A DNA stretch of 12,634 nucleotides, from assembly GCA_003246035.1 (NCBI GenBank), contig QKBP01000068.1:1-12634 (forward strand), in the 5' to 3' direction. Below, piece after piece: positions 3 through 12,604 of this stretch. The DNA comes from Desulfuromonadaceae bacterium (lineage in GTDB: Bacteria; Desulfobacterota; Desulfuromonadia; Desulfuromonadales; SZUA-401). Made by a program: the position numbers and the translations under genes. The notes beneath the pieces are model-generated. The model ran no database searches, was not told where the DNA came from, and was given only the letters and a program-made list of their open reading frames with translations. The first letter of the stretch is position 1, and each line of letters opens with the position of its first letter.

Positions 3-611
3 TCCTTCGGGCGGGCGCTGGCAGGTCTCGACCACCTGCACGCCGCCGGGGTGCGCAGCACCATGAGCACCGTGATCTCGCGCCTCAACTACCGGCACCT
101 CGAAGAGGTGCTGGACGTGGCCCGCGCCCGTAGTGTGGCGCAGGTCTACTTGCACAACTTCAAGTGCAGCGGGCGTGGCTTCAAGAACCGCCAGGAGCTC
201 GACCTGAGCGCCGAGGAGTGGCGGGATTTCTACGTCGAGGCCCTCGAGGTCAAGGCGCGGACCACGGACCTGACCATCTCCTTCGATGACCCGGTGATCG
301 CCTCGCTCCCCGGCTACGCGGAGAGTGCCCTGGTCAAGGGGAGCACCTGCGGGAAACTCTCTTTGCACCTGCGCCCCAACGGCGACATCACCCCCTGCGG
401 TTTCATCCCGGTCGTCGTTGGCAACATCCTGAAGGACGATTTCTCCGAGTTGTGGCACGAGTCGCCGGTGCTTAAGGCGATGCGCCACAAGGAGGCCCAG
501 GGGAAGTGCCAGTCGTGCGGCGCCTTCGGCGACTGCCTCGGCGGCTGCACGGCGCGCGCCTTCGCCACCACGGGAGATTTCAATCAGCCCGATCCCCATT
601 GCTGGAAATAA
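3..611 (+). CDS. Radical SAM/SPASM protein, C-terminal part (GeoRSP-type peptide maturase), truncated by window edge
   Basis: The reading frame is open from base 3, so the N-terminal radical SAM core with its CxxxCxxC cluster lies outside the window; 202 residues are visible. The C-terminus is a textbook SPASM domain. Cysteine codons start at 348, 396, 507, 516, 534, 546 and 600, giving C-x15-C (ending NGDITPC), then C-x2-C-x5-C-x3-C and a last Cys three residues from the end. In known SPASM enzymes these bind auxiliary 4Fe-4S clusters and the enzymes modify peptides or proteins by radical chemistry. The GTG at 51 is only an internal codon, because residues before it (ALAGLDHLHAAGV) continue a typical TIM-barrel helix. 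A tiny peptide gene follows after 30 bases and a second SPASM gene after that. This arrangement matches the GeoRSP system I recall from Geobacter and relatives. Family assignment to radical SAM/SPASM is strong; the GeoRSP subfamily is inferred from context. Confidence 0.9.
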   Translation, partial: SFGRALAGLDHLHAAGVRSTMSTVISRLNYRHLEEVLDVARARSVAQVYLHNFKCSGRGFKNRQELDLSAEEWRDFYVEALEVKARTTDLTISFDDPVIASLPGYAESALVKGSTCGKLSLHLRPNGDITPCGFIPVVVGNILKDDFSELWHESPVLKAMRHKEAQGKCQSCGAFGDCLGGCTARAFATTGDFNQPDPHCWK

Positions 612-627
612 CCGTCAACCCCAACCC

Positions 628-635
628 GAGGAGGT
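628..635 (+). promoter_or_regulatory. Strong ribosome binding site of the tiny peptide gene
   Basis: GAGGAGGT lies six bases before the ATG at 642. It is among the best Shine-Dalgarno matches in the window, better than those of the larger genes tsaD, rsmA or the cysteine desulfurase. A strong site in front of an 18-codon frame argues that the frame is translated, and at a high rate. Confidence 0.7.
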
Positions 636-641
636 ACGATC

Positions 642-698
642 ATGAAGCGTTACAGCAAACCCCGTGTGGTCGGATCGTCGAACGTCCACCCCTGCTAA
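642..698 (+). CDS. Candidate RiPP precursor peptide, 18 residues
   Basis: The frame encodes MKRYSKPRVVGSSNVHPC and stops at TAA (696-698). It sits between two SPASM-domain genes, has a near-ideal ribosome binding site, and is followed six bases later by a perfect hairpin with a T-run. The N-terminal half is basic and carries Y4-x-x-P7-x-V9 and G11. This resembles the YxxPxL leader motif that discrete PqqD-like recognition proteins bind in lasso peptide precursors. The remaining short tail, GSSNVHPC, would be the core, with Ser, Asn, His and a C-terminal Cys as plausible modification or metal-binding residues. I do not recognise a named family for this peptide. The role as substrate of the flanking radical SAM/SPASM protein is inferred from position, translation signal and motif. 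It could alternatively be a short leader peptide controlling the hairpin behind it, although the Cys-terminated composition and lack of codon repeats do not suggest amino-acid attenuation. Confidence 0.6.
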   Translation: MKRYSKPRVVGSSNVHPC

Positions 699-768: not shown

Positions 769-1692
769 ATGCAGGAATTCGATACCCCCCTGAGGTTGAC
801 CTGGGAGATCGCCGGGAAAGGTGCGCATCTCGATGCGCCCCGCCTGCTCAAGGTGGCCGACGCGATCGCCGAGGCCGGTGTCCTGTTCGTCACCCTGGAA
901 GGGGATCCCCTCCACCACCCCGCTGCAGCCCAGCTGCTGGAACGGCTCGCGGCCGGAGGGTGCCAGGTGACCGCGGTCGTTGCCGACCCTGACGGCCTCG
1001 ACGCAGGACTTCCTCTGGCCGAGGTGGCCCTCGACGCCGGCCCCCGGCTGGGCCCCGAATCTAAAGGGCTCGGTGGCCTGGCCGCGGTCCTGGAAGAGGT
1101 CCGCGGTCGGGGCTTCGAGCCGCTCCTGTGGCTCGCGCCCTACAAGTCCTATCTGACTGAAATAACGAAGCTATTCAGGTTTTGCGCGGAGTGCGGCGTG
1201 GGGAGATTTAAGTTGTCAAACCTGCCGATAAGTGCTAGCTTTGCACGACTCGTCCCGGCGGAAATACCGCGTCCCGAGGACCTGCAGCCCCTCGCCACCG
1301 AACTGCGTGAGGCTGCCGGGGAGGTGCGCGGGCGGGTGCGCCTCGAGGTGCACGACCGTTTCCTCTGGGAGACACTGGCGGAACAGAGCGCCAGCCTGGC
1401 CGAGTATGGCGGTTGCCAGGCGGCCAACAGCCTGGCCCACGTCGACGCAGGGGGGAACGTGCACCCCTGCAGTTCCTGGCCTGAGCGGCTCGGCAACCTC
1501 CTTGTTTCGTCCTTCGAGGAACTCTGGCGTTCAGAACCGCGCCGCTCGATCCGGCAGCGGATCGCCGAAATGCCGGACAGCTGTGCCGGCTGCCGCGATT
1601 ACCAGGAGTGTTTTGCCGGCTGTCGCGGCCTGAGCGCCTGCTGTGATTTCGCCAACGAGGGACGCGATCCGCTGTGCGGCGGACGGCGTTGA
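769..1692 (+). CDS. GeoRSP-type SPASM domain protein with degenerate radical SAM half
   Basis: This 307-residue protein has a complete C-terminal SPASM cysteine set: C216, C234, then C272-x2-C275-x5-C281-x3-C285, with C291, C292 and C303 at the end. The N-terminal half resembles a radical SAM barrel (PLRLTWEIAGKG, then VTLEGDPLHHP where active enzymes have a GGEPL-like motif). The cluster loop, however, reads WEIAGKGAHLDAP and has no CxxxCxxC. It should therefore bind auxiliary Fe-S clusters but not perform SAM cleavage, consistent with a binding or electron-transfer partner for the upstream radical SAM protein. This matches what I recall as the GeoRSP system SPASM domain protein. An extra pair, C139-x2-C142, lies mid-protein. 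The start has GGAGA at 754-758, ten bases upstream. Codon use between about 1141 and 1270 differs clearly from the rest. The stop is followed 13 bases later by the cysteine desulfurase gene. Confidence 0.82.
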   Translation: MQEFDTPLRLTWEIAGKGAHLDAPRLLKVADAIAEAGVLFVTLEGDPLHHPAAAQLLERLAAGGCQVTAVVADPDGLDAGLPLAEVALDAGPRLGPESKGLGGLAAVLEEVRGRGFEPLLWLAPYKSYLTEITKLFRFCAECGVGRFKLSNLPISASFARLVPAEIPRPEDLQPLATELREAAGEVRGRVRLEVHDRFLWETLAEQSASLAEYGGCQAANSLAHVDAGGNVHPCSSWPERLGNLLVSSFEELWRSEPRRSIRQRIAEMPDSCAGCRDYQECFAGCRGLSACCDFANEGRDPLCGGRR

Positions 1693-1705: not shown

Positions 1706-2857
1706 ATGACCCTGTATCTCGACAACGCGGCAACCTCATTCCCCCGACCCGAAGCGGTCTACCGGGCCGTCGATTCGACCCTGCGTCAGGTCGGCGCGAG
1801 CCCCGGCCGGGGAGGGTACCGCATGGCGGTCGATGCGTCGCGGCTGGTCTTCGAGGTCCGCGAACAGCTCGCGACGTTTTTCTCCATCCCTGACGCCTCC
1901 CGCCTGGCCTTTACTTCGGGGTGTACCGAGGCGCTGAACCTGGCGCTGTTCGGTGTCCTGGAACCCGGTGACCGGGTGGTGACCACCGGCATGGAGCACA
2001 ACGCCGTATGTCGCCCCCTCCAGGCCCTCGCCAGTCGCGGGGTCGAGGTGGTCCGGGTCGTGCCCGATCCCGACGGCTTCGTGTCGCCAGACGCGCTACG
2101 AAAAGCCTGCACACCGGGGACACGCATGCTGGTGATGACCCATGCCTCGAACGTGACCGGGACGGTCCAGCCGCTCGAAGAGATCGGCCCCTGGTGCCGG
2201 CAGCAGGGGATTCTGCTGCTGGTCGATGCCGCCCAGAGCGCCGGACTGCTGGAGATCGATGTCGAAACGCTCGGTATCGACCTGCTGGCGGTCGCCGGGC
2301 ACAAGGGGCTGTTCGGTCCCCCGGGAACCGGGGCCCTCTACGTACGCGAAGGGGTGGAGCTGGCTCCGCTGATCTATGGCGGTACCGGCAGCGGTTCCGA
2401 ATCGCTGGAACCTCCGCAGCAGATGCCGGAACGGTTCGAAAGCGGCACGCTCAATACCCCTGGGATCGCCGGACTGGGCGCCGGTATCAGCTTCATTCAG
2501 GAGCAGGGTGTGGCGAGCTTCGCGGTGCGCAAGCGCGAACAGGTCCAGGCCCTGCTTGACGGTCTCGGCCGGATTGAGCGGGTAAGGCTTTTCGGTCCTC
2601 GTGACGCGACCCGTCATGCCGGGGCGATCTCCTTCGTGCTTGAAGGTCAGGACCCTTCGGAGACGGGTTTCAGGCTCGACCACGAGTACGACATCGCCTG
2701 CCGGGTGGGTCTCCACTGTGCTCCCGAGGCACACCGCGCCATCGGGACCTTCCCCTCCGGGACGGTCCGGGTGAGCCCCGGTTTCGAGACCACCCCGGCC
2801 GATATCGAACGGTTTCTTGCTGCAGTCAATGACCTGGCGGCCAGGTTGACCCCCTGA
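1706..2857 (+). CDS. Cysteine desulfurase family protein (class V aminotransferase)
   Basis: This is a PLP enzyme of 383 residues, the usual length. It begins MTLYLDNAATSFPRP, the standard N-terminus of the family, so the start is secure although no good ribosome binding site precedes it; translation may be coupled to the gene ending 13 bases upstream. Visible motifs are FTSGCTEALNLAL, THASNVTGT, VDAAQSAG, and AGHK with the PLP-binding Lys at K200. GLHCAPEAH carries the probable catalytic Cys, C338. Such enzymes release sulfur (or selenium) from cysteine or selenocysteine as a bound persulfide or selenide. The pattern is closest to the EF2568-like branch of SufS/NifS relatives that I recall, whose physiological acceptor is generally unclear. 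Its position suggests sulfur supply for the Fe-S-rich SPASM proteins or for peptide modification, but a housekeeping role is equally possible. Family call is strong, acceptor unknown. Confidence 0.88.
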   Translation: MTLYLDNAATSFPRPEAVYRAVDSTLRQVGASPGRGGYRMAVDASRLVFEVREQLATFFSIPDASRLAFTSGCTEALNLALFGVLEPGDRVVTTGMEHNAVCRPLQALASRGVEVVRVVPDPDGFVSPDALRKACTPGTRMLVMTHASNVTGTVQPLEEIGPWCRQQGILLLVDAAQSAGLLEIDVETLGIDLLAVAGHKGLFGPPGTGALYVREGVELAPLIYGGTGSGSESLEPPQQMPERFESGTLNTPGIAGLGAGISFIQEQGVASFAVRKREQVQALLDGLGRIERVRLFGPRDATRHAGAISFVLEGQDPSETGFRLDHEYDIACRVGLHCAPEAHRAIGTFPSGTVRVSPGFETTPADIERFLAAVNDLAARLTP

Positions 2858-2882: not shown

Positions 2883-3164
2883 ATGCATACCCTTTCCCGC
2901 TGGATTCTGGCCGTGCTGCTGCTCAGTTTTAGCGCCTGCTCGCTCCCCCCGACCAAGCCGATCACCATCGACGAGCTGATGGCCACCAAGGTTTTCCGCA
3001 TCTACAAGATCGACGAGTCGCCCGAAGACGTCCTGCGGGTGCTCAACCGCGACGGCGAAGTGATCGTCAAGGGGGAACGGACGTTGCGGGGCAAGACGAT
3101 CCCGGTCTACGTGAAGATTCTCGCCGCCAGCGATGGTATGGAAATCGCCGACTACGAACGTTAA
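2883..3164 (+). CDS. Small putative lipoprotein of unknown function
   Basis: The product has 93 residues. The N-terminus shows a short charged region, a hydrophobic stretch (WILAVLLLSFSA) and the lipobox-like FSAC with the acylated Cys at position 19. The next residues, Ser-Leu, are not an inner-membrane retention signal, so an outer-membrane, periplasm-facing location is likely. The mature part is about 74 residues, soluble and mixed alpha/beta in character, with KPITIDELMATKVFRIYKID and a basic middle (VIVKGERTLRGKTIPVYVKI). It contains no further Cys. AAGGAG at 2871-2876, six bases before the ATG, supports the start. It lies 25 bases after the desulfurase and 18 bases before phoH. I do not recognise the family. 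Secretion and lipidation are well supported by the motif; function is not. Confidence 0.75.
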   Translation: MHTLSRWILAVLLLSFSACSLPPTKPITIDELMATKVFRIYKIDESPEDVLRVLNRDGEVIVKGERTLRGKTIPVYVKILAASDGMEIADYER

Positions 3165-6954: not shown

Positions 6955-7823
6955 ACGAGCCCGTGGCCCGCGTCAACGGGAGCCCGATCACCCGCTACGA
7001 ACTGAACACCGTGCTGCAGGAGTTTGCCCTTCAGCAGCGGGATACAGTGAAGGATGAGGCGGAATCACGCCAGCGACTCCAGGCCCTCGCCCTCGAGAGG
7101 CTGGTGGCGCGCGAGTTGATCTATCAGCATGCTCTCGCCAGCGGTGTCGTTGCCGGCGAAGAGGCGGTGGCCGCCGAGTGTCGCCGGGCCGTGGAGGGCT
7201 TCCGCCGGGAATCGGAATTCCTCGAGGCCCTGGAGAAGGCCGGCGGGGACGTCGCCGCCTTCCAGCGCGCGATCCGCAAGGACGTGACGGTCGCCCAGAT
7301 GAGTGAGCAGATTCTGGCCCAGGTCTCTCCTCCCGGAGACCAGGACGTCGAGGCGTTTTACCGCAATCACCCCGAACGCCTCAGCCTTCCCGAGCGTTAC
7401 ACCCTGCGCCAGCTGCTGTTGCCGTGCGAGGAGGGGGAGCGGGAGGCGACCCGCAAGAGGATCGATGCGATCCGCACGGAGCTCGAAGGGAGCGATTTTT
7501 TCTCCCTGGTCCGCCGCTACTCGGAGTGCCCCAGCGCCCAAAACGACGGGGTGCTCGAGGGGGTCACGGCCGGACAGATGGCTCCCGAGATCAAGGCAGC
7601 CCTCGATGCTCTCGAGCCCGGCGAGGTCGGGGGACCTGTCGAAACCCCGACCGGCTTTCACCTGGTCGAAAAGCTCGCCGTGGTTCCCGGCGGGGTACGC
7701 CCTTTCGAGGCGTGCCGCGACGAGATTCGCGCCTTCCTGCTGCGCGACGCACGTTCCCGGACGCTCGAAGCCTGGGTAGATCAGCTGCGTGCGTCCGCGC
7801 GGATCGAAATACTGCTCACCTGA
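6951..7823 (+). CDS. Parvulin-type peptidylprolyl isomerase, apparently cytoplasmic
   Basis: The protein has 290 residues. Residues about 5-145 are a helical SurA/NifM-like chaperone region (VARVNGSPITRYELN, then helices to FYRNHPERLSLPERY). Residues about 149-242 form a PpiC-type rotamase domain (YTLRQLLLP, DFFSLVRRYSECPSAQNDG, PVETPTGFHLVEKL). A C-terminal helix follows. It should catalyse cis-trans isomerisation of prolyl bonds or act as a chaperone. Unlike SurA or PrsA it starts directly with the chaperone region and shows no signal peptide or lipobox, so I infer a cytoplasmic location. The stretch RRYSECPSAQNDGVLEGVTAGQM recalls NifM, the nitrogenase maturation isomerase, but there is no nif gene here. 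The ATGA overlap with rsmA supports the start and translational coupling. Domain call strong, client unknown. Confidence 0.88.
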   Translation: MNEPVARVNGSPITRYELNTVLQEFALQQRDTVKDEAESRQRLQALALERLVARELIYQHALASGVVAGEEAVAAECRRAVEGFRRESEFLEALEKAGGDVAAFQRAIRKDVTVAQMSEQILAQVSPPGDQDVEAFYRNHPERLSLPERYTLRQLLLPCEEGEREATRKRIDAIRTELEGSDFFSLVRRYSECPSAQNDGVLEGVTAGQMAPEIKAALDALEPGEVGGPVETPTGFHLVEKLAVVPGGVRPFEACRDEIRAFLLRDARSRTLEAWVDQLRASARIEILLT

Positions 7824-7829
7824 ACAGGT

Positions 7830-7850
7830 CGGACCGGCCGTGCCGGTCCG
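7830..7850 (+). other. Perfect 9-bp hairpin between the isomerase and glutamate dehydrogenase genes
   Basis: CGGACCGGC (7830-7838) pairs perfectly with GCCGGTCCG (7842-7850) around a CGT loop. It begins six bases after the isomerase stop and ends just before the ribosome binding site at 7853-7859. There is no T-run, so it is more likely an mRNA processing or stability element, or a translational modulator, than a terminator. Confidence 0.55.
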
Positions 7851-7867
7851 CCAGGAGGGTCGACGGC

Positions 7868-10800
7868 ATGGCCAAGAAATCGACGTCTGCACCACCGACC
7901 GGCGGCGGGACCCGGCGACAGTTCGAGGAGATCGCCGCGACGATTGAACGGGGCGTCGCGCCGGAGCGCGCCGAGCTGCTCCTCGCCCTGCACGAACTGA
8001 TGCTGGTTCGCGCCCCGTATTCACCCCTGCTTGAAGCTCCCATCGATAAAGTGATCGACGTCCTCGAGTTCGGTGTCGCAACCCTCACCGGTCGCACTGA
8101 GACCGTGTACGTCCAGTTGCGTCCAGGCGGGGAGGGGGGAAAACCGCTGCTCGCCACCAGTACCCCCGATGTTCCGTTCCTGCTCTCCTCGCTGCTGGTC
8201 TACCTGCGCAAGCAGAACGTCCACCATCAGGTGCTCGGTCACCCGATCCTGGGCGTGGTCCGTGACAAGAATAGCCTGCGTCAGCTTCTCCCCCTCGACA
8301 GCGAAGCCCCCCGTGAATCGCTGATCCTGCTCGAGCTCGACTTTGTCCCGGAAGGGCTCGAAGAGCGGCTTCCGGTCGAGATCGAGGATCTGCTGGCCAA
8401 GGTTCATGCCGTTGCCGCCGACCAGGTGGGGCTGCTCGAACAGATGCAGCTCATGGCCGGACGGACAGGGCTCGACGGGTACCAGGAGTTTATCGACTGG
8501 CTGGAAGCGGAGAATTTTCACCGTTTCGCCTACCGCTGCCTCGAGGTGTCTCCCGAGGGGGGGGTACGCCTGGCCGACGAGGCCCTCGGTCTCCCGATCG
8601 AGGAAGGGGGCAGCGACAAGGAGGTGCCGCTCGCCAAGGTGCCGCGCCCGCTCCGTTCCTGGCTGCGCCGTCAGGACCCGGTGCTGGTCGAACAGTCTCC
8701 CTGGCAGAGCCCCCTGTATCGCGACGAGCCGCTGACCTACCTCGGTTTCCGCGAGCCCCTCTCCGGCGGGGGTTTCAGGGAGCACGGCTTCTTCGGGCTG
8801 TTTACGCCCCAGAGCGTCGACGAGCCCTCCTTCGACGTCCCCTATCTACGGCTCAAGATCGAAGCCGCCCTCGACACCATGGAGATCCCTCCCGACAGCT
8901 ACGATCGCCGACTGAGCATCGAGATCCTGAACACCTTCCCGAAAGTCGAGCTGTTCCTGATGAGCGCCGAGGAGCTCTGCCGGGTGATCCGGTCGTTCCT
9001 CTCCCTGCAGCGCCGCGATTCGGTCCGCGTGGTCACTGCGCGCCGCCTTTCCCTCGAGGGGCTGGCGCTGCTGGTGGTCATGCCGAAGGAATTTTTCAAC
9101 AGCGACAACCGGCGCCGAATGGAAAACTACCTGCGCCGGGCCTTCCGTTCAAAGACCGCAGAGGTCCGCCTGATTCATGTCTACGGCGAGTTTTTCAGTG
9201 CCCTGGTGCGCCTGCAGCCGAAGGGGGGGAAGCTCGAGGTCGACAGCTACGCCCTCGAGGGGGTGTTGACCCGACTCCTGCAGAGCTGGGACAACAAGCT
9301 GCTGCACGCCCTCGAGCGGCTCTGCGGCATGGTGCGGGGGCAATCGCTCTGGCACAGCTACGTCAGCCGCTTTGCGCTCGATTACCGGCGCATGGTGCAT
9401 CCGCGCTATGCCGCCCGGGATGTCCTGGCGATCGACGAGGTGCTCAAGGACGGCAGGGCCCGTTTCGACATGTGGGGCCCGCGGCCGGGGAGTCGGGATT
9501 TCGTCCTGCAGTTCTACGCCCTGACCCAGAGTTATCTCAACGAGCTGATGCCGCTGCTCGAGAACCTCGGCCTGTGCGTGGTCGAAGAGGTCGACTTCAA
9601 TGTCGAGGCCGGCGAACGTACCGTCTACCTGAAGAGCTTCGTCCTGCACGACCGCGGAGACGGGCTCGATATCGGCAGCCAGCGCGGCAATTTGCTGGAG
9701 ACCCTCGACGCGCTGTGGCACGGCACGGTGGAGAACGACTATCTCCACCTGCTGCAGCTCAAGACCGGCCTCGACTGGCGACAGGTCGACGTGTTCCGCG
9801 GCTACCGCAACTACTATTTCCAGCTCGGATCTCCCTTCACCAAGAAACGGGTCGCCTTCGCCCTGGTCCAGAACGCCGAGGTGGCGCGCCTGCTCTACGA
9901 CTACTTCGAGGCGCGTTTCAACGACCGTCCGGAATGGCGCGATCCGGAGCAGCGCGAGGAACAGGCGCTGATGCCGCTGCGTATGCAGCTGATCGAGGCG
10001 CTTGAGCAGGTTAGCGACGTTAACGAGGACCGGATCCTCAGGACCTTCTTCAACCTGATCGATTCGACGGTCCGCAGCAACTTCTACCTGCGCAGGGAGA
10101 GTGACGACTACTTCTTCGCCTTCAAGATCAGCGCGATCGGGATCATCGACATGCCGTTCCCACGCCCGCGCTTCGAGGTCTATGTCCACTCGGCGCAGAT
10201 GGAGGGTATTCATCTGCGCGGCGGGCTGGTGGCGCGCGGCGGGATCCGCTGGTCGGATCGTCCTGACGACTTCCGCACCGAGGTCCTCGGCCTGATGAAG
10301 ACCCAGATGACCAAGAACACCGTGATCGTACCGGTCGGCTCCAAGGGGGGGTTCGTGGTCAAGACCCCCTTTACGCGGCGCGAGGAAGGGGCGGAGCTGT
10401 CCCGTGCGGCCTACATCACCCTGATGCGCGGTCTGCTCGACCTGACCGACAACCGCGTCGGCGGCGACGTGGTTCACCCCGAAGGGCTGGTCTGTTATGA
10501 CGGCGACGACTCCTACCTGGTCGTGGCCGCCGACAAGGGGACGGCCCATCTCCCCGACACCGCCAATGGGGTCTCCCTCGACTACCGGTTCTGGCTCGGC
10601 GACGCCTTCGCCAGCGGAGGCTCCCACGGTTACGATCACAAGAAGCTCGGGATCACCGCGCGCGGGGCCTGGGAGAGCGTCAAGCGTCACTTCCGAGAGC
10701 TCGGGCGGGACATTCAGAGCGAACCGTTCACGGTGGTCGGGGTCGGCGACATGAGCGGCGACGTGTTCGGCAACGGCATGCTGCTTTCCCCGCACATCCG

Positions 10801-12604
10801 CCTGCGCGCCGCTTTCGATCACCGCCACATCTTCATCGACCCCGACCCTGACGCGGCGACATCGTTCCGTGAGCGGCAGCGGCTGTTCGACACTCCACGC
10901 TCTTCCTGGGACGACTACGAGCGAGCGCTGATCTCGACGGGGGGCGGGGTGTGGCCCCGGGCGAGCAAGGACATTCCCCTCTCCGCCGAAGTCCGTGCCT
11001 GGCTCGGGATCCGGCATGCCTCGCTCGACGGCGAGGGGCTGATCCGCCTGCTGCTGTGTGCTGAAACCGACCTGCTCTGGAACGGCGGGATCGGAACCTA
11101 CGTCAAGTCATCGCTGGAGAAGAATGAAGAGGTCGGTGACAGAGCCAATGACGCCGTCCGTGTCGACGCCGGCCATCTCAAGGCACGGGTGGTGGGGGAG
11201 GGGGGGAACCTCGGCTTTACCCAGCGCGCCCGCATCGAATACGCCCTTGCCGGCGGGCGGATCAACACCGATGCCATCGACAACTCCGCGGGGGTCGACA
11301 CCTCGGACCACGAGGTCAACCTGAAGATCCTCATGCAGCTGCTGTGCGACGAGGGGAGGCTGCGGGACGACACGCAGCGCAACCGTCTCCTCGAACAGCT
11401 GACCGATGACGTCTGCGCCAAGGTCCTGTACAACAACTACTCCCAGAGCCTCTGCCTGGCGCTCGACGAGATGCGTTGTCGCATCGCCCCGGAGCGCTTC
11501 TTCGATCTGGCCGATCGCCTGGTGAATGCCGGCCTGCTCGACCGCCAGGGTGAATTCCTCCCCGGCCGCAAGGAGGTGCTGGCCCGCGACCCGGTCGGCT
11601 TCACCCGCCCGGAACTCTCGATTCTGCTGGCCTACACCAAGATGCACGTCTTCAACGCCCTGCTCGAAAGCGACCTCCCCAACCAGCCGTCGGTCACGGG
11701 GCTGCTCAAGGGGTATTTCCCGGAGCGTTTGCGGAAGGAATTCTCCGGGGATATCCTCCAGCACCCGCTGGCCCGGGAGATCGTGGCCACGGTGATCAAC
11801 AACCGGGTCATCGACCAGGGGGGGTGTACCCTGGTGCATTCCCTGGCTCAGGAGACGGGGACGTCGCTCGTCGACGTGGTCGGGAGCTATCTTGCTTTTG
11901 AAGAGCTGCTCGATGCCGACAGGTTGCGCGCCACCCTCTATGCTCTCGACAACCGTGTCGCCGCGAGTATTCAGTCGGAGTTGCTGCTGCTGCTTGAAGA
12001 CAGCCTGCGCACCCTGTGCCGCTGGGAGCTCGAGAACCGGGAGGCCCAGAGCCTCGAAAAGGACTCCGGGGATGAACTCCGTCGCCAGCTCGGGACCTAC
12101 TTCAAGGACCTTGCCGGCATCCTCCCCGACGTCGAACGGCAACGCAGCGAGGCCTTCCAGCAGCGCATGCACAAGGCGGGAGTCCCCGAGGAGGAGCTGT
12201 CCGCGTTTCTCCCCTTGCTGCACATCCAGGATTTCCTGCCGCTGGTCGCCCTGTCCCGCCGTGCCCGGGTCAATCTCTATTCGGCAGCCGTGACCCTGAT
12301 GGACGTTCGCCGCAGTTTCGAGATCGGCCTTTTGGCCGACGGCATGTCGAGGGTGCCGCTGCGCGATCACTGGGACCGGGTCGCCGCTCGCGACCTCAAG
12401 CGTTCCCTCGAGGACGTCGCCTATCGCATGGTCGAGAGAGTGCTGATCGACCACGACGGCAACCTCGAGGCCTTCGTCAATCGCCGTCGCCGGCGCGTCG
12501 GCGCGTACCGGGAGCTCTGTGCGCGCCTGCGTGCCACCACGCCGGTCAACCTTCATCCGCTGGCGGTCAGCATCGAGTCCCTGCGGGAACTGCTGCACGA
12601 CTAG
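7868..12604 (+). CDS. gdhB: NAD-specific glutamate dehydrogenase, large 180-kDa class
   Basis: The enzyme interconverts glutamate plus NAD and 2-oxoglutarate plus ammonium plus NADH, usually in the catabolic direction, in the cytoplasm. The 1578-residue length is typical of this class (about 1600), far larger than hexameric GDHs. The N-terminal half (about 1-690) is the regulatory, ACT-like region. The catalytic core follows, with GGIRWSDRPDDFRTEV at 791-806, VGSKGGFVVK around K826, the dinucleotide-binding GVGDMSGDVFGNGML at 958-972, NGGIGTYVK, and GEGGNLGFTQRARIEYA starting at 1110. The C-terminal region from about 1200 is mostly helical. The ATG at 7868 was chosen because AGGAGGG lies eight bases upstream; the frame stays open upstream to 7424, but that part overlaps the isomerase gene. 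No frameshift or missing catalytic residue is seen. Symbols vary between organisms (gdhB, gdhZ). Regulation may involve the hairpin just upstream. Confidence 0.96.
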   Translation: MAKKSTSAPPTGGGTRRQFEEIAATIERGVAPERAELLLALHELMLVRAPYSPLLEAPIDKVIDVLEFGVATLTGRTETVYVQLRPGGEGGKPLLATSTPDVPFLLSSLLVYLRKQNVHHQVLGHPILGVVRDKNSLRQLLPLDSEAPRESLILLELDFVPEGLEERLPVEIEDLLAKVHAVAADQVGLLEQMQLMAGRTGLDGYQEFIDWLEAENFHRFAYRCLEVSPEGGVRLADEALGLPIEEGGSDKEVPLAKVPRPLRSWLRRQDPVLVEQSPWQSPLYRDEPLTYLGFREPLSGGGFREHGFFGLFTPQSVDEPSFDVPYLRLKIEAALDTMEIPPDSYDRRLSIEILNTFPKVELFLMSAEELCRVIRSFLSLQRRDSVRVVTARRLSLEGLALLVVMPKEFFNSDNRRRMENYLRRAFRSKTAEVRLIHVYGEFFSALVRLQPKGGKLEVDSYALEGVLTRLLQSWDNKLLHALERLCGMVRGQSLWHSYVSRFALDYRRMVHPRYAARDVLAIDEVLKDGRARFDMWGPRPGSRDFVLQFYALTQSYLNELMPLLENLGLCVVEEVDFNVEAGERTVYLKSFVLHDRGDGLDIGSQRGNLLETLDALWHGTVENDYLHLLQLKTGLDWRQVDVFRGYRNYYFQLGSPFTKKRVAFALVQNAEVARLLYDYFEARFNDRPEWRDPEQREEQALMPLRMQLIEALEQVSDVNEDRILRTFFNLIDSTVRSNFYLRRESDDYFFAFKISAIGIIDMPFPRPRFEVYVHSAQMEGIHLRGGLVARGGIRWSDRPDDFRTEVLGLMKTQMTKNTVIVPVGSKGGFVVKTPFTRREEGAELSRAAYITLMRGLLDLTDNRVGGDVVHPEGLVCYDGDDSYLVVAADKGTAHLPDTANGVSLDYRFWLGDAFASGGSHGYDHKKLGITARGAWESVKRHFRELGRDIQSEPFTVVGVGDMSGDVFGNGMLLSPHIRLRAAFDHRHIFIDPDPDAATSFRERQRLFDTPRSSWDDYERALISTGGGVWPRASKDIPLSAEVRAWLGIRHASLDGEGLIRLLLCAETDLLWNGGIGTYVKSSLEKNEEVGDRANDAVRVDAGHLKARVVGEGGNLGFTQRARIEYALAGGRINTDAIDNSAGVDTSDHEVNLKILMQLLCDEGRLRDDTQRNRLLEQLTDDVCAKVLYNNYSQSLCLALDEMRCRIAPERFFDLADRLVNAGLLDRQGEFLPGRKEVLARDPVGFTRPELSILLAYTKMHVFNALLESDLPNQPSVTGLLKGYFPERLRKEFSGDILQHPLAREIVATVINNRVIDQGGCTLVHSLAQETGTSLVDVVGSYLAFEELLDADRLRATLYALDNRVAASIQSELLLLLEDSLRTLCRWELENREAQSLEKDSGDELRRQLGTYFKDLAGILPDVERQRSEAFQQRMHKAGVPEEELSAFLPLLHIQDFLPLVALSRRARVNLYSAAVTLMDVRRSFEIGLLADGMSRVPLRDHWDRVAARDLKRSLEDVAYRMVERVLIDHDGNLEAFVNRRRRRVGAYRELCARLRATTPVNLHPLAVSIESLRELLHD

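What the first reader, a model, noticed from the sequence alone, without database searches (positions are those of the whole stretch)
642..698. An 18-residue gene between two SPASM genes looks like an overlooked RiPP precursor
Seen: MKRYSKPRVVGSSNVHPC has a GAGGAGGT ribosome binding site six bases upstream, lies between a radical SAM/SPASM gene and a SPASM-only gene, and is followed at once by a terminator-like stem. It is far below usual gene-calling length limits. Known: radical SAM/SPASM proteins commonly modify small peptides encoded next to them, often with a PqqD-like chaperone. Inference: this is the substrate of the GeoRSP-type system, and the product may be a very small modified peptide or cofactor with core near GSSNVHPC. 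I do not know a described product for such a system.
Basis: partly seen in the sequence, partly recalled or inferred. Interest (0 to 1): 0.82.

Follow-up and report, generated by a model that had tools for sequence, protein, structure and literature searches.

The report
Tiny peptide partnering giant secreted cytochromes
An overlooked 18-residue gene belongs to a family of tiny, strongly conserved peptides that occur together with one peptide-modifying enzyme system and often lie, in several copies per genome, beside genes for large secreted multi-heme cytochromes and other surface proteins in relatives of Desulfuromonas.

Summary
MKRYSKPRVVGSSNVHPC (642-698) is a real gene: a peptide of this family follows the radical SAM gene in 42 of 48 related loci, with synonymous change well above nonsynonymous. 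In 277 genomes of one class, 82 of 84 with the GeoRSP-type radical SAM gene carry the peptide, against 13 of 193 others (kinship not corrected). Genomes hold 1-6 copies, many far from the enzyme genes. Of 96 dispersed copies with at least 1.2 kb upstream, 44 lie within 500 nt after a same-strand gene with at least five CxxCH motifs, against 11 of 202 control ORFs; 79 of 113 adjoin a recognised secreted-protein family and 34 do not. The SPASM-only protein is a radical-SAM paralogue without the cluster motif. The maturation locus usually also encodes PqqD-, YedE-, PhnD- and beta-helix-type proteins. Best reading: dispersed RiPP-type precursors for one maturase, whose product serves co-encoded secreted proteins. 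Translation, modification and function are not shown.

The parts
3..611 (+). C-terminal 202 residues of the GeoRSP-type radical SAM/SPASM enzyme (its N-terminus lies before the window)
   Evidence: TIGR04303 2.3e-86, 290 bits on model positions 125-325; full-length relatives pass the cut-off of 400, e.g. 447.6 bits in G002
628..635 (+). ribosome binding site GAGGAGGT, six bases before the ATG
   Evidence: sequence; RBS-like stretch before 118 of 121 distinct copies then held, generous pattern, no shuffle control
642..698 (+). 18-residue precursor peptide MKRYSKPRVVGSSNVHPC, stop included
   Evidence: family member after the radical SAM gene in 42 of 48 related loci; synonymous excess; co-occurrence with TIGR04303
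704..735 (+). terminator-like hairpin (704-714/718-728) and short T run (732-735)
   Evidence: not listed by the stricter scan; terminator-like site within 90 nt after the stop in 78 of 119 copies, 4 of 119 after one simple shuffle each
769..1692 (+). SPASM-only partner: pseudo-radical-SAM paralogue that keeps SPASM cysteines and has no N-terminal CX3CX2C
   Evidence: TIGR04304 102.5 bits, below its cut-off of 300; alignment; paralogy of the two proteins of L060, 4e-14; model pLDDT 81, pTM 0.84, nearest solved folds PqqE and SuiB
1706..2857 (+). cysteine desulfurase family protein (aminotransferase class V), probable accessory gene of this branch
   Evidence: TIGR01977 466 bits, cut-off 377; in 35 of 35 Desulfuromonas-type loci with enough flank, in 0 of 19 Geobacter-type and 0 of 14 other loci

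Best explanation
This is one gene of a family of precursor peptides of about 17-21 residues (M-K-x-Y-x-K-P-R/K-V-V-G-S-x-x-V-H-P-C) that serve one GeoRSP-type maturation machine. Inferred order of steps: the PqqD-type protein binds the Y-x-K-P half; the radical SAM/SPASM enzyme, helped in most lineages by its pseudo-radical-SAM paralogue, modifies the C-terminal SxxVHPC half, most probably at the Cys; the envelope proteins of the locus (YedE-type transporter, PhnD-type binding protein, TPR and beta-helix proteins) supply a sulfur/selenium species or move the product; the product then works outside the cytoplasm with the large secreted protein (multiheme cytochrome, FG-GAP, fn3, NosD-like or carboxypeptidase-regulatory protein) beside whose gene the peptide is usually encoded. 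Shown here: reading frame, conservation, co-occurrence, gene order, dispersal next to secreted proteins. Inferred: translation, modification, export, partnership.
For: After the radical SAM gene in 42 of 48 Desulfuromonas-type loci and in 9 of 16 genomes outside the class (8 of 15 new ones plus G005). Co-occurrence in one class: 82 both, 2 radical SAM only, 13 peptide only, 180 neither of 277 (Fisher 1.7e-53, not corrected for kinship); of the 13, four have only pieces of a strong radical SAM match, cut or split (G020, G048, G071, G072), nine have only weaker matches. In a phylum-wide draw of 395: 25 both, 1 radical SAM only, 3 peptide only (10 of the 26 radical SAM genomes are also in the class set). 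Of 29 genomes searched because no peptide was found at the radical SAM gene (one of them, G085, because the contig ends there), 27 have a match elsewhere at E <= 1e-4. Coding: pS 0.77 against pN 0.34 at positions the search pattern left free. Partners: 44 of 96 dispersed copies within 500 nt after a same-strand gene with at least 5 CxxCH, against 11 of 202 distant ORFs; 22 of 55 in the first set and 22 of 41 in a second set fetched afterwards. Locus content.
Against: No protease or peptide exporter was recognised among the L060 locus proteins that I annotated. Modification cannot be shown from sequence. 34 of 113 dispersed copies had no recognised secreted family on the same strand within 500 nt; some of these are contig ends, cut cytochrome genes or antisense ORFs picked by the simple gene caller, but in three the neighbours look alike and, in the one tested (L248), are an HD-domain gene and a Bax-inhibitor-like gene. 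G184, G228 and G448 have the radical SAM gene and no recognisable peptide. G471 and G625 have a peptide and no radical SAM hit at 1e-20, G515 only a weak one. Partners differ widely and share no obvious tail, so one partner chemistry is not evident.
Confidence: 0.72

Rival explanations
1. A PQQ- or mycofactocin-like diffusible redox cofactor: all copies feed one shared pool, and copies sit in cytochrome operons only to match cofactor supply to cytochrome expression.
For: Constant C-terminal end in an HMM-based listing; PqqD-family protein and a SPASM enzyme whose paralogue folds closest to PqqE; up to six copies per genome.
Against: No dehydrogenase was recognised among the representative partners I annotated, and several (FG-GAP, fn3, Ig-like) carry no known redox centre; the defining residues of PqqA and MftA, as I recall them, are absent.
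Confidence: 0.25
2. A free secreted RiPP (metal chelator such as a chalkophore, signal or antibiotic) not tied to particular proteins; C-terminal His-Pro-Cys would be the metal-binding part.
For: NosD-like beta-helix proteins recur in the locus and next to some copies; His-Pro-Cys ends 87 of 88 rows.
Against: Placement within 500 nt after multiheme cytochrome genes in 44 of 96 copies is not expected of a free product; no exporter, immunity gene or protease was recognised among the L060 locus proteins annotated; the sequence is very constant for an antibiotic.
Confidence: 0.15
3. Sulfur or selenium carrier: the peptide's C-terminal Cys takes up S or Se with the cysteine desulfurase and YedE-type protein and passes it on.
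For: TIGR04112 seleno_YedE (397 bits, cut-off 200) and TIGR01977 in the locus; selenate-type binding-protein similarity, below cut-off.
Against: The desulfurase is absent from the 19 Geobacter-type and 14 other loci, and YedE from 5 of the 19; does not explain secreted partners; YedE as selenium transporter is itself putative.
Confidence: 0.1
4. Not a precursor but a regulatory leader or ribosome-arrest peptide with an attenuator.
For: Short frame, conserved C-terminus and a hairpin right after it look like an attenuator leader.
Against: The next downstream ORF of at least 150 aa within 500 nt is convergent in 42 of the 92 copies that have one (heuristic ORFs, some may be spurious), so the hairpin often ends the operon; the peptide follows the secreted-protein gene and co-occurs with the radical SAM gene; codons vary freely.
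Confidence: 0.04

Closest known systems
GeoRSP system of NCBIfam (TIGR04302 PqqD family, TIGR04303 radical SAM/SPASM, TIGR04304 SPASM protein)
   Same: Radical SAM gene of the relatives passes TIGR04303's cut-off; PqqD-family and SPASM proteins in the same order.
   Different: The peptide and four variants hit no NCBIfam model; in this branch PqqD (95 against 100 in L060) and SPASM (102 in the window, 82 in L060, against 300) fall below their cut-offs; precursors are dispersed beside secreted proteins.
PQQ biosynthesis (PqqA, PqqD, PqqE)
   Same: Very short precursor, PqqD-type chaperone, SPASM-type enzyme; pseudo-radical-SAM model closest to PqqE. PqqA likewise has a K-P motif near its start (recalled).
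   Different: No Glu-x3-Tyr core (recalled feature); C-terminal Cys; dispersed copies; extra envelope genes.
Mycofactocin (MftA, MftB, MftC)
   Same: One small precursor class feeding one radical SAM/SPASM maturase; the radical SAM part scores 88 bits with TIGR03962, cut-off 265.
   Different: MftA ends in Val-Tyr (recalled), here Val-His-Pro-Cys; I did not search for mycofactocin partner genes.
Thio(seleno)oxazole RiPP system SbtA/SbtM (TIGR04082)
   Same: Radical SAM/SPASM maturase with a possible selenium link (YedE, desulfurase).
   Different: Radical SAM part scores 38.6 bits with TIGR04082, cut-off 350; the peptide matches no NCBIfam family.

Membership tests
GeoRSP system | radical SAM/SPASM protein over the TIGR04303 cut-off (400 bits) | tested here: inconclusive
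   Window holds only the C-terminal 202 residues (290 bits); Desulfuromonas-type relatives that are not cut by contig ends score 430-467.
GeoRSP system | SPASM partner over the TIGR04304 cut-off (300 bits) | tested here: not met
   102.5 bits for the window protein, 82.1 for L060. Hence called GeoRSP-type, not a member.
GeoRSP system | PqqD-family protein over the TIGR04302 cut-off (100 bits) | tested here: inconclusive
   Outside the window; 95.2 bits in L060; PF05402 64.5 bits, cut-off 23.4.
RiPP | genetically encoded small precursor linked to a modifying enzyme | tested here: met
RiPP | leader-binding (PqqD/RRE) protein | tested here: met
   By homology in relatives: 35 of 35 Desulfuromonas-type, 18 of 19 Geobacter-type, 14 of 14 other loci with enough flank; binding not tested.
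RiPP | post-translational modification of the peptide | not testable with these tools
   Needs mass spectrometry.
PQQ precursor PqqA | Glu-x3-Tyr of the PQQ core (recalled) | tested here: not met
   Absent from the window peptide and from the 100 variants printed; no NCBIfam hit.
Mycofactocin precursor MftA | C-terminal Val-Tyr (recalled) | tested here: not met
   Window peptide ends in Pro-Cys, as do all 88 rows of the HMM-based listing.
Transcription attenuator leader | co-directional regulated gene after the terminator | tested here: not met
   Not met as a rule: convergent next ORF in 42 of 92 copies, co-directional in 50. In the window itself the next gene is co-directional.

The most novel reading that the evidence does not exclude
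A ribosomal peptide is turned by one central radical-SAM machine into a prosthetic group, cap or tether for secreted giant multiheme cytochromes and other surface proteins: each secreted protein is encoded together with its own copy of the precursor. It would be a new RiPP-derived protein modification or cofactor of the extracellular electron-transfer apparatus of these bacteria.
Probability: 0.35. Interest if true: 0.93.

Novelty: new variant of a known kind. Interest (0 to 1): 0.82.

Why it matters
The GeoRSP enzymes have names in NCBIfam, but no NCBIfam or Pfam family recognised the peptide, and the paper listings I saw described no substrate (open-access library only, titles and starts of abstracts). 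This gives the enzymes a probable substrate, one that is very small for a RiPP-type precursor, and ties a peptide-modifying system to large multiheme cytochromes in a group known (recalled, not tested for these genomes) for metal reduction and electron transfer out of the cell. It makes direct tests possible: look for the modified peptide on or with those cytochromes.

Tried and rejected
Chance ORF: rejected. RNA element only: rejected, synonymous changes dominate and the frame is kept. Attenuator: see rivals. A Geobacter-type peptide in the maturation locus itself: looked for by small-ORF scans, none found; the output was cut. The HMM then found copies elsewhere. A broader HMM (28 variants) did not find a peptide in G184, G228 or G448. 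A common C-terminal sorting tail in the partners: many cytochromes end in W-N-x-x-T-P-W, but FG-GAP, fn3 and Ig-like partners do not. My first HPC* scan outside the class missed two peptides because of a length filter; corrected. The genome of the window is not held, so its own dispersed copies were not counted.

Limits of the counts: gene calls are longest-ORF heuristics and can pick antisense ORFs; the 202 control ORFs are distant ORFs of the same fetched stretches, not a random genome sample; the co-occurrence tests ignore kinship. The search pattern fixes Y/F, P, V/I/L, H/Y, P and C, so constancy at those places in these calls proves nothing; pN 0.20 over all 15 codons is lowered by that, and 0.34 is the fair figure. 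Set A came from 60 fetched regions, not from every dispersed hit (short contigs and some weaker hits were left out). Set B (40 regions) took hits from the capped listing, roughly in listed order, skipping those beside the radical SAM gene, those already fetched, and many with little contig upstream.

Full report
Observation. The frame 642-698 encodes MKRYSKPRVVGSSNVHPC with GAGGAGGT six bases before the ATG. An 11-bp hairpin begins five bases after the stop, although the stricter terminator scan listed none there. The gene before it is the C-terminal part of a GeoRSP-type radical SAM/SPASM protein and the gene after it is SPASM-only; then comes a cysteine-desulfurase family gene.

Conservation next to the enzyme gene. 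Five relatives of the SPASM-only gene were found in named genomes. L002, L003 and L004 (Deltaproteobacteria bacterium IMCC39146, Desulfuromonas sp. BM103, a Desulfuromonadales MAG) showed MKKYIKPRVVGSSNVHPC or MKKYSKPRVTGSSNVHPC in the gap; L001 (a Desulfuromonadaceae MAG) carries it too; L005's SPASM gene lies apart from its radical SAM gene, where the peptide is (L006). Of 49 Desulfuromonas-type loci one ends at the contig edge (L093); of the other 48, 42 have the peptide within about 260 nt after the radical SAM gene. In the six exceptions the SPASM gene follows almost directly. In the 35 Geobacter-type loci the peptide is absent from the stretches held, some of them short; in the eight that I read closely the SPASM gene also follows almost directly. 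Outside the class, 9 of 16 genomes have it next to the radical SAM gene, including MKTRYVKPRVTGQSSVHPC and MKKIPYVKPRIAGTSSVHPC.

Dispersed copies. An HMM of 16 variants was run on 34 genomes: 28 with no peptide found at the radical SAM gene, one (G085) whose locus is cut by the contig end, and five positive ones. Of the first 29, 27 have a match at E <= 1e-4; G184 has none and G448 no credible one; several genomes have four to six. Over the class 95 of 277 genomes have a match at E <= 1e-3, 229 matches, 1 to 6 per genome, 65 genomes with at least two. Radical SAM gene and peptide: both 82, radical SAM only 2 (G184, G228), peptide only 13, neither 180; Fisher p 1.7e-53 without correction for kinship. 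Of the 13, four (G020, G048, G071, G072) have pieces of a strong radical SAM match, cut or split; the other nine have only weaker matches, 1e-21 to 1e-43. A draw of 395 genomes across the phylum, sharing 10 of its 26 radical SAM genomes with the class set, gave 25 both, 1 radical SAM only (G448), 3 peptide only; of these three, two showed no radical SAM hit at 1e-20 and one a weak hit.

Coding signal. A pattern search of all loci held gave 171 distinct contexts and 103 entries, 100 of them printed, three of these without a Met start in the printed stretch. The pattern fixes six places, so I rest constancy of the end on the HMM-based listing: all 88 rows end in Pro-Cys and 87 in His-Pro-Cys, with some rows repeating one copy. 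Conserved residues use many synonymous codons, e.g. Pro at -12 CCC/CCG/CCT/CCA, Gly all four, His CAT/CAC. At the nine places the pattern left free pS is 0.77 and pN 0.34; over all 15 codons 0.75 and 0.20. Of 121 contexts then held an RBS-like stretch precedes 118 (generous pattern, no shuffle), and a terminator-like hairpin follows 78 of 119 against 4 of 119 after one simple shuffle each.

Neighbours of dispersed copies. In the first set many copies lie behind a same-strand gene for a large exported-looking protein: multiheme cytochromes, most with 10 to 83 CxxCH motifs in the part held, FG-GAP/UnbV_ASPIC proteins, fn3/beta-propeller proteins with over 1,900 residues in the part held, Ig/invasin-like proteins (the one tested has a C-terminal Biotin_lipoyl domain), carboxypeptidase-regulatory-like proteins; NosD-type beta-helix proteins lie after some copies. 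A second set of 46 copies, fetched afterwards, gave the same picture. Together 113 distinct copies: of 96 with at least 1.2 kb upstream, 44 have a same-strand gene with at least five CxxCH ending within 500 nt upstream (22 of 55 and 22 of 41), against 11 of 202 ORFs more than 2.5 kb from any copy (Fisher 4.6e-16); 79 of 113 have at least one recognised family on the same strand within 500 nt, 34 do not. For scale, cytochromes of any kind make up 1.7-2.6% of ORFs in the five Geobacter genomes whose lines I saw (PMC2825233, passage only). The next downstream ORF of at least 150 residues within 500 nt is convergent in 42 of the 92 copies that have one and co-directional in 50.

The maturation locus. 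Representative proteins of L060 are, in order: beta-helix/NosD-like, PhnD/selenate-type binding protein, TPR-like protein (weak Pfam matches), YedE-type putative selenium transporter (TIGR04112, 397 bits, cut-off 200), PqqD family (TIGR04302, 95 bits, cut-off 100), radical SAM, peptide, SPASM-only, cysteine desulfurase (the desulfurase family was assigned on the window protein). Counted by tblastn similarity among loci with at least 3.6 kb before and 1.2 kb after the radical SAM match: all seven accompanying genes in 35 of 35 Desulfuromonas-type loci; in 19 Geobacter-type loci PqqD 18, SPASM 19, PhnD, TPR and YedE 14 each, beta-helix 8, desulfurase 0; in 14 others PqqD 14, PhnD and YedE 13 each, beta-helix 10, TPR 4, SPASM 3, desulfurase 0. 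A CX3CX2C pattern is present somewhere in the radical SAM match of 140 of 143 loci (duplicates of one genome included); the other three are contig-cut pieces. The SPASM-only protein of L060 aligns with the radical SAM protein of the same locus over about 290 residues (4e-14), while the aligned SPASM-only proteins show no N-terminal CX3CX2C; the model of the window protein (pLDDT 81, pTM 0.84) is nearest to PqqE and SuiB, with SkfB further down the list. It is therefore most likely a pseudo-radical-SAM partner.

Mechanism. The simplest account is a divided RiPP-type system: one central maturase, many tiny precursors, each encoded beside a secreted protein. The Y-x-K-P half resembles leaders bound by PqqD-type proteins (recalled); the C-terminal half is the most constant and holds the invariant Cys, so it is the likeliest site of modification. 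A product that acts with the co-encoded exported protein explains the gene order; a shared cofactor pool, with copies as dosage, explains it nearly as well. Nothing here shows translation, chemistry, export or binding.

Prior knowledge. NCBIfam names the three enzymes; no NCBIfam or Pfam family matched the peptide or the four variants tried. Paper searches, of which I saw listings with titles and starts of abstracts: GeoRSP gave one irrelevant paper; combinations with Geobacter, SPASM, PqqD, RiPP, multiheme cytochrome, YedE and extracellular electron transfer gave no paper or no listing that described this peptide (one showed 10 of 34, 92 showed 10 of 12). I saw passages only of PMC2825233, PMC3543383 and PMC4289311, none of which mentions it. 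Subscription papers are mostly not in the library.

Noticed in passing
L183:5946-9140 (-); similar proteins in L172 and L174: A secreted-looking Ig/invasin-like protein of 1,064 residues carries a C-terminal Biotin_lipoyl-type domain (PF00364); similar tails end the proteins before the peptide in L172 and L174.
   Followed up: partly
L214, and the cytochrome partners: Very heme-dense ORFs (83 CxxCH in the 1,958 residues held in L214), and a recurrent C-terminus W-N-x-x-T-P-W in many of the cytochromes.
   Followed up: no
L284, L180, L190, L185: Paired or triple peptide copies: two 103 nt apart in L284, two about 1.2 kb apart in L180 and L190, three within 2 kb in L185 near an ORF with a CX3CX2C stretch (that ORF was not tested against a family library).
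   Followed up: no
L248, L252, L274: In three genomes a peptide copy lies between similar neighbours, in L248 an HD-domain gene and a Bax-inhibitor-like gene, which fit no secreted-partner pattern.
   Followed up: partly
G184, G228, G448: Radical SAM gene present but no recognisable peptide found in the genome: a diverged substrate or loss.
   Followed up: partly
window 2883-3164: Conserved 93-residue frame after the desulfurase, with relatives in 24 of the loci compared (cluster 10), no Pfam or NCBIfam match.
   Followed up: no
window 7424-12604: A 1,726-residue frame that looks like a large NAD-dependent glutamate dehydrogenase (recalled likeness, not tested).
   Followed up: no
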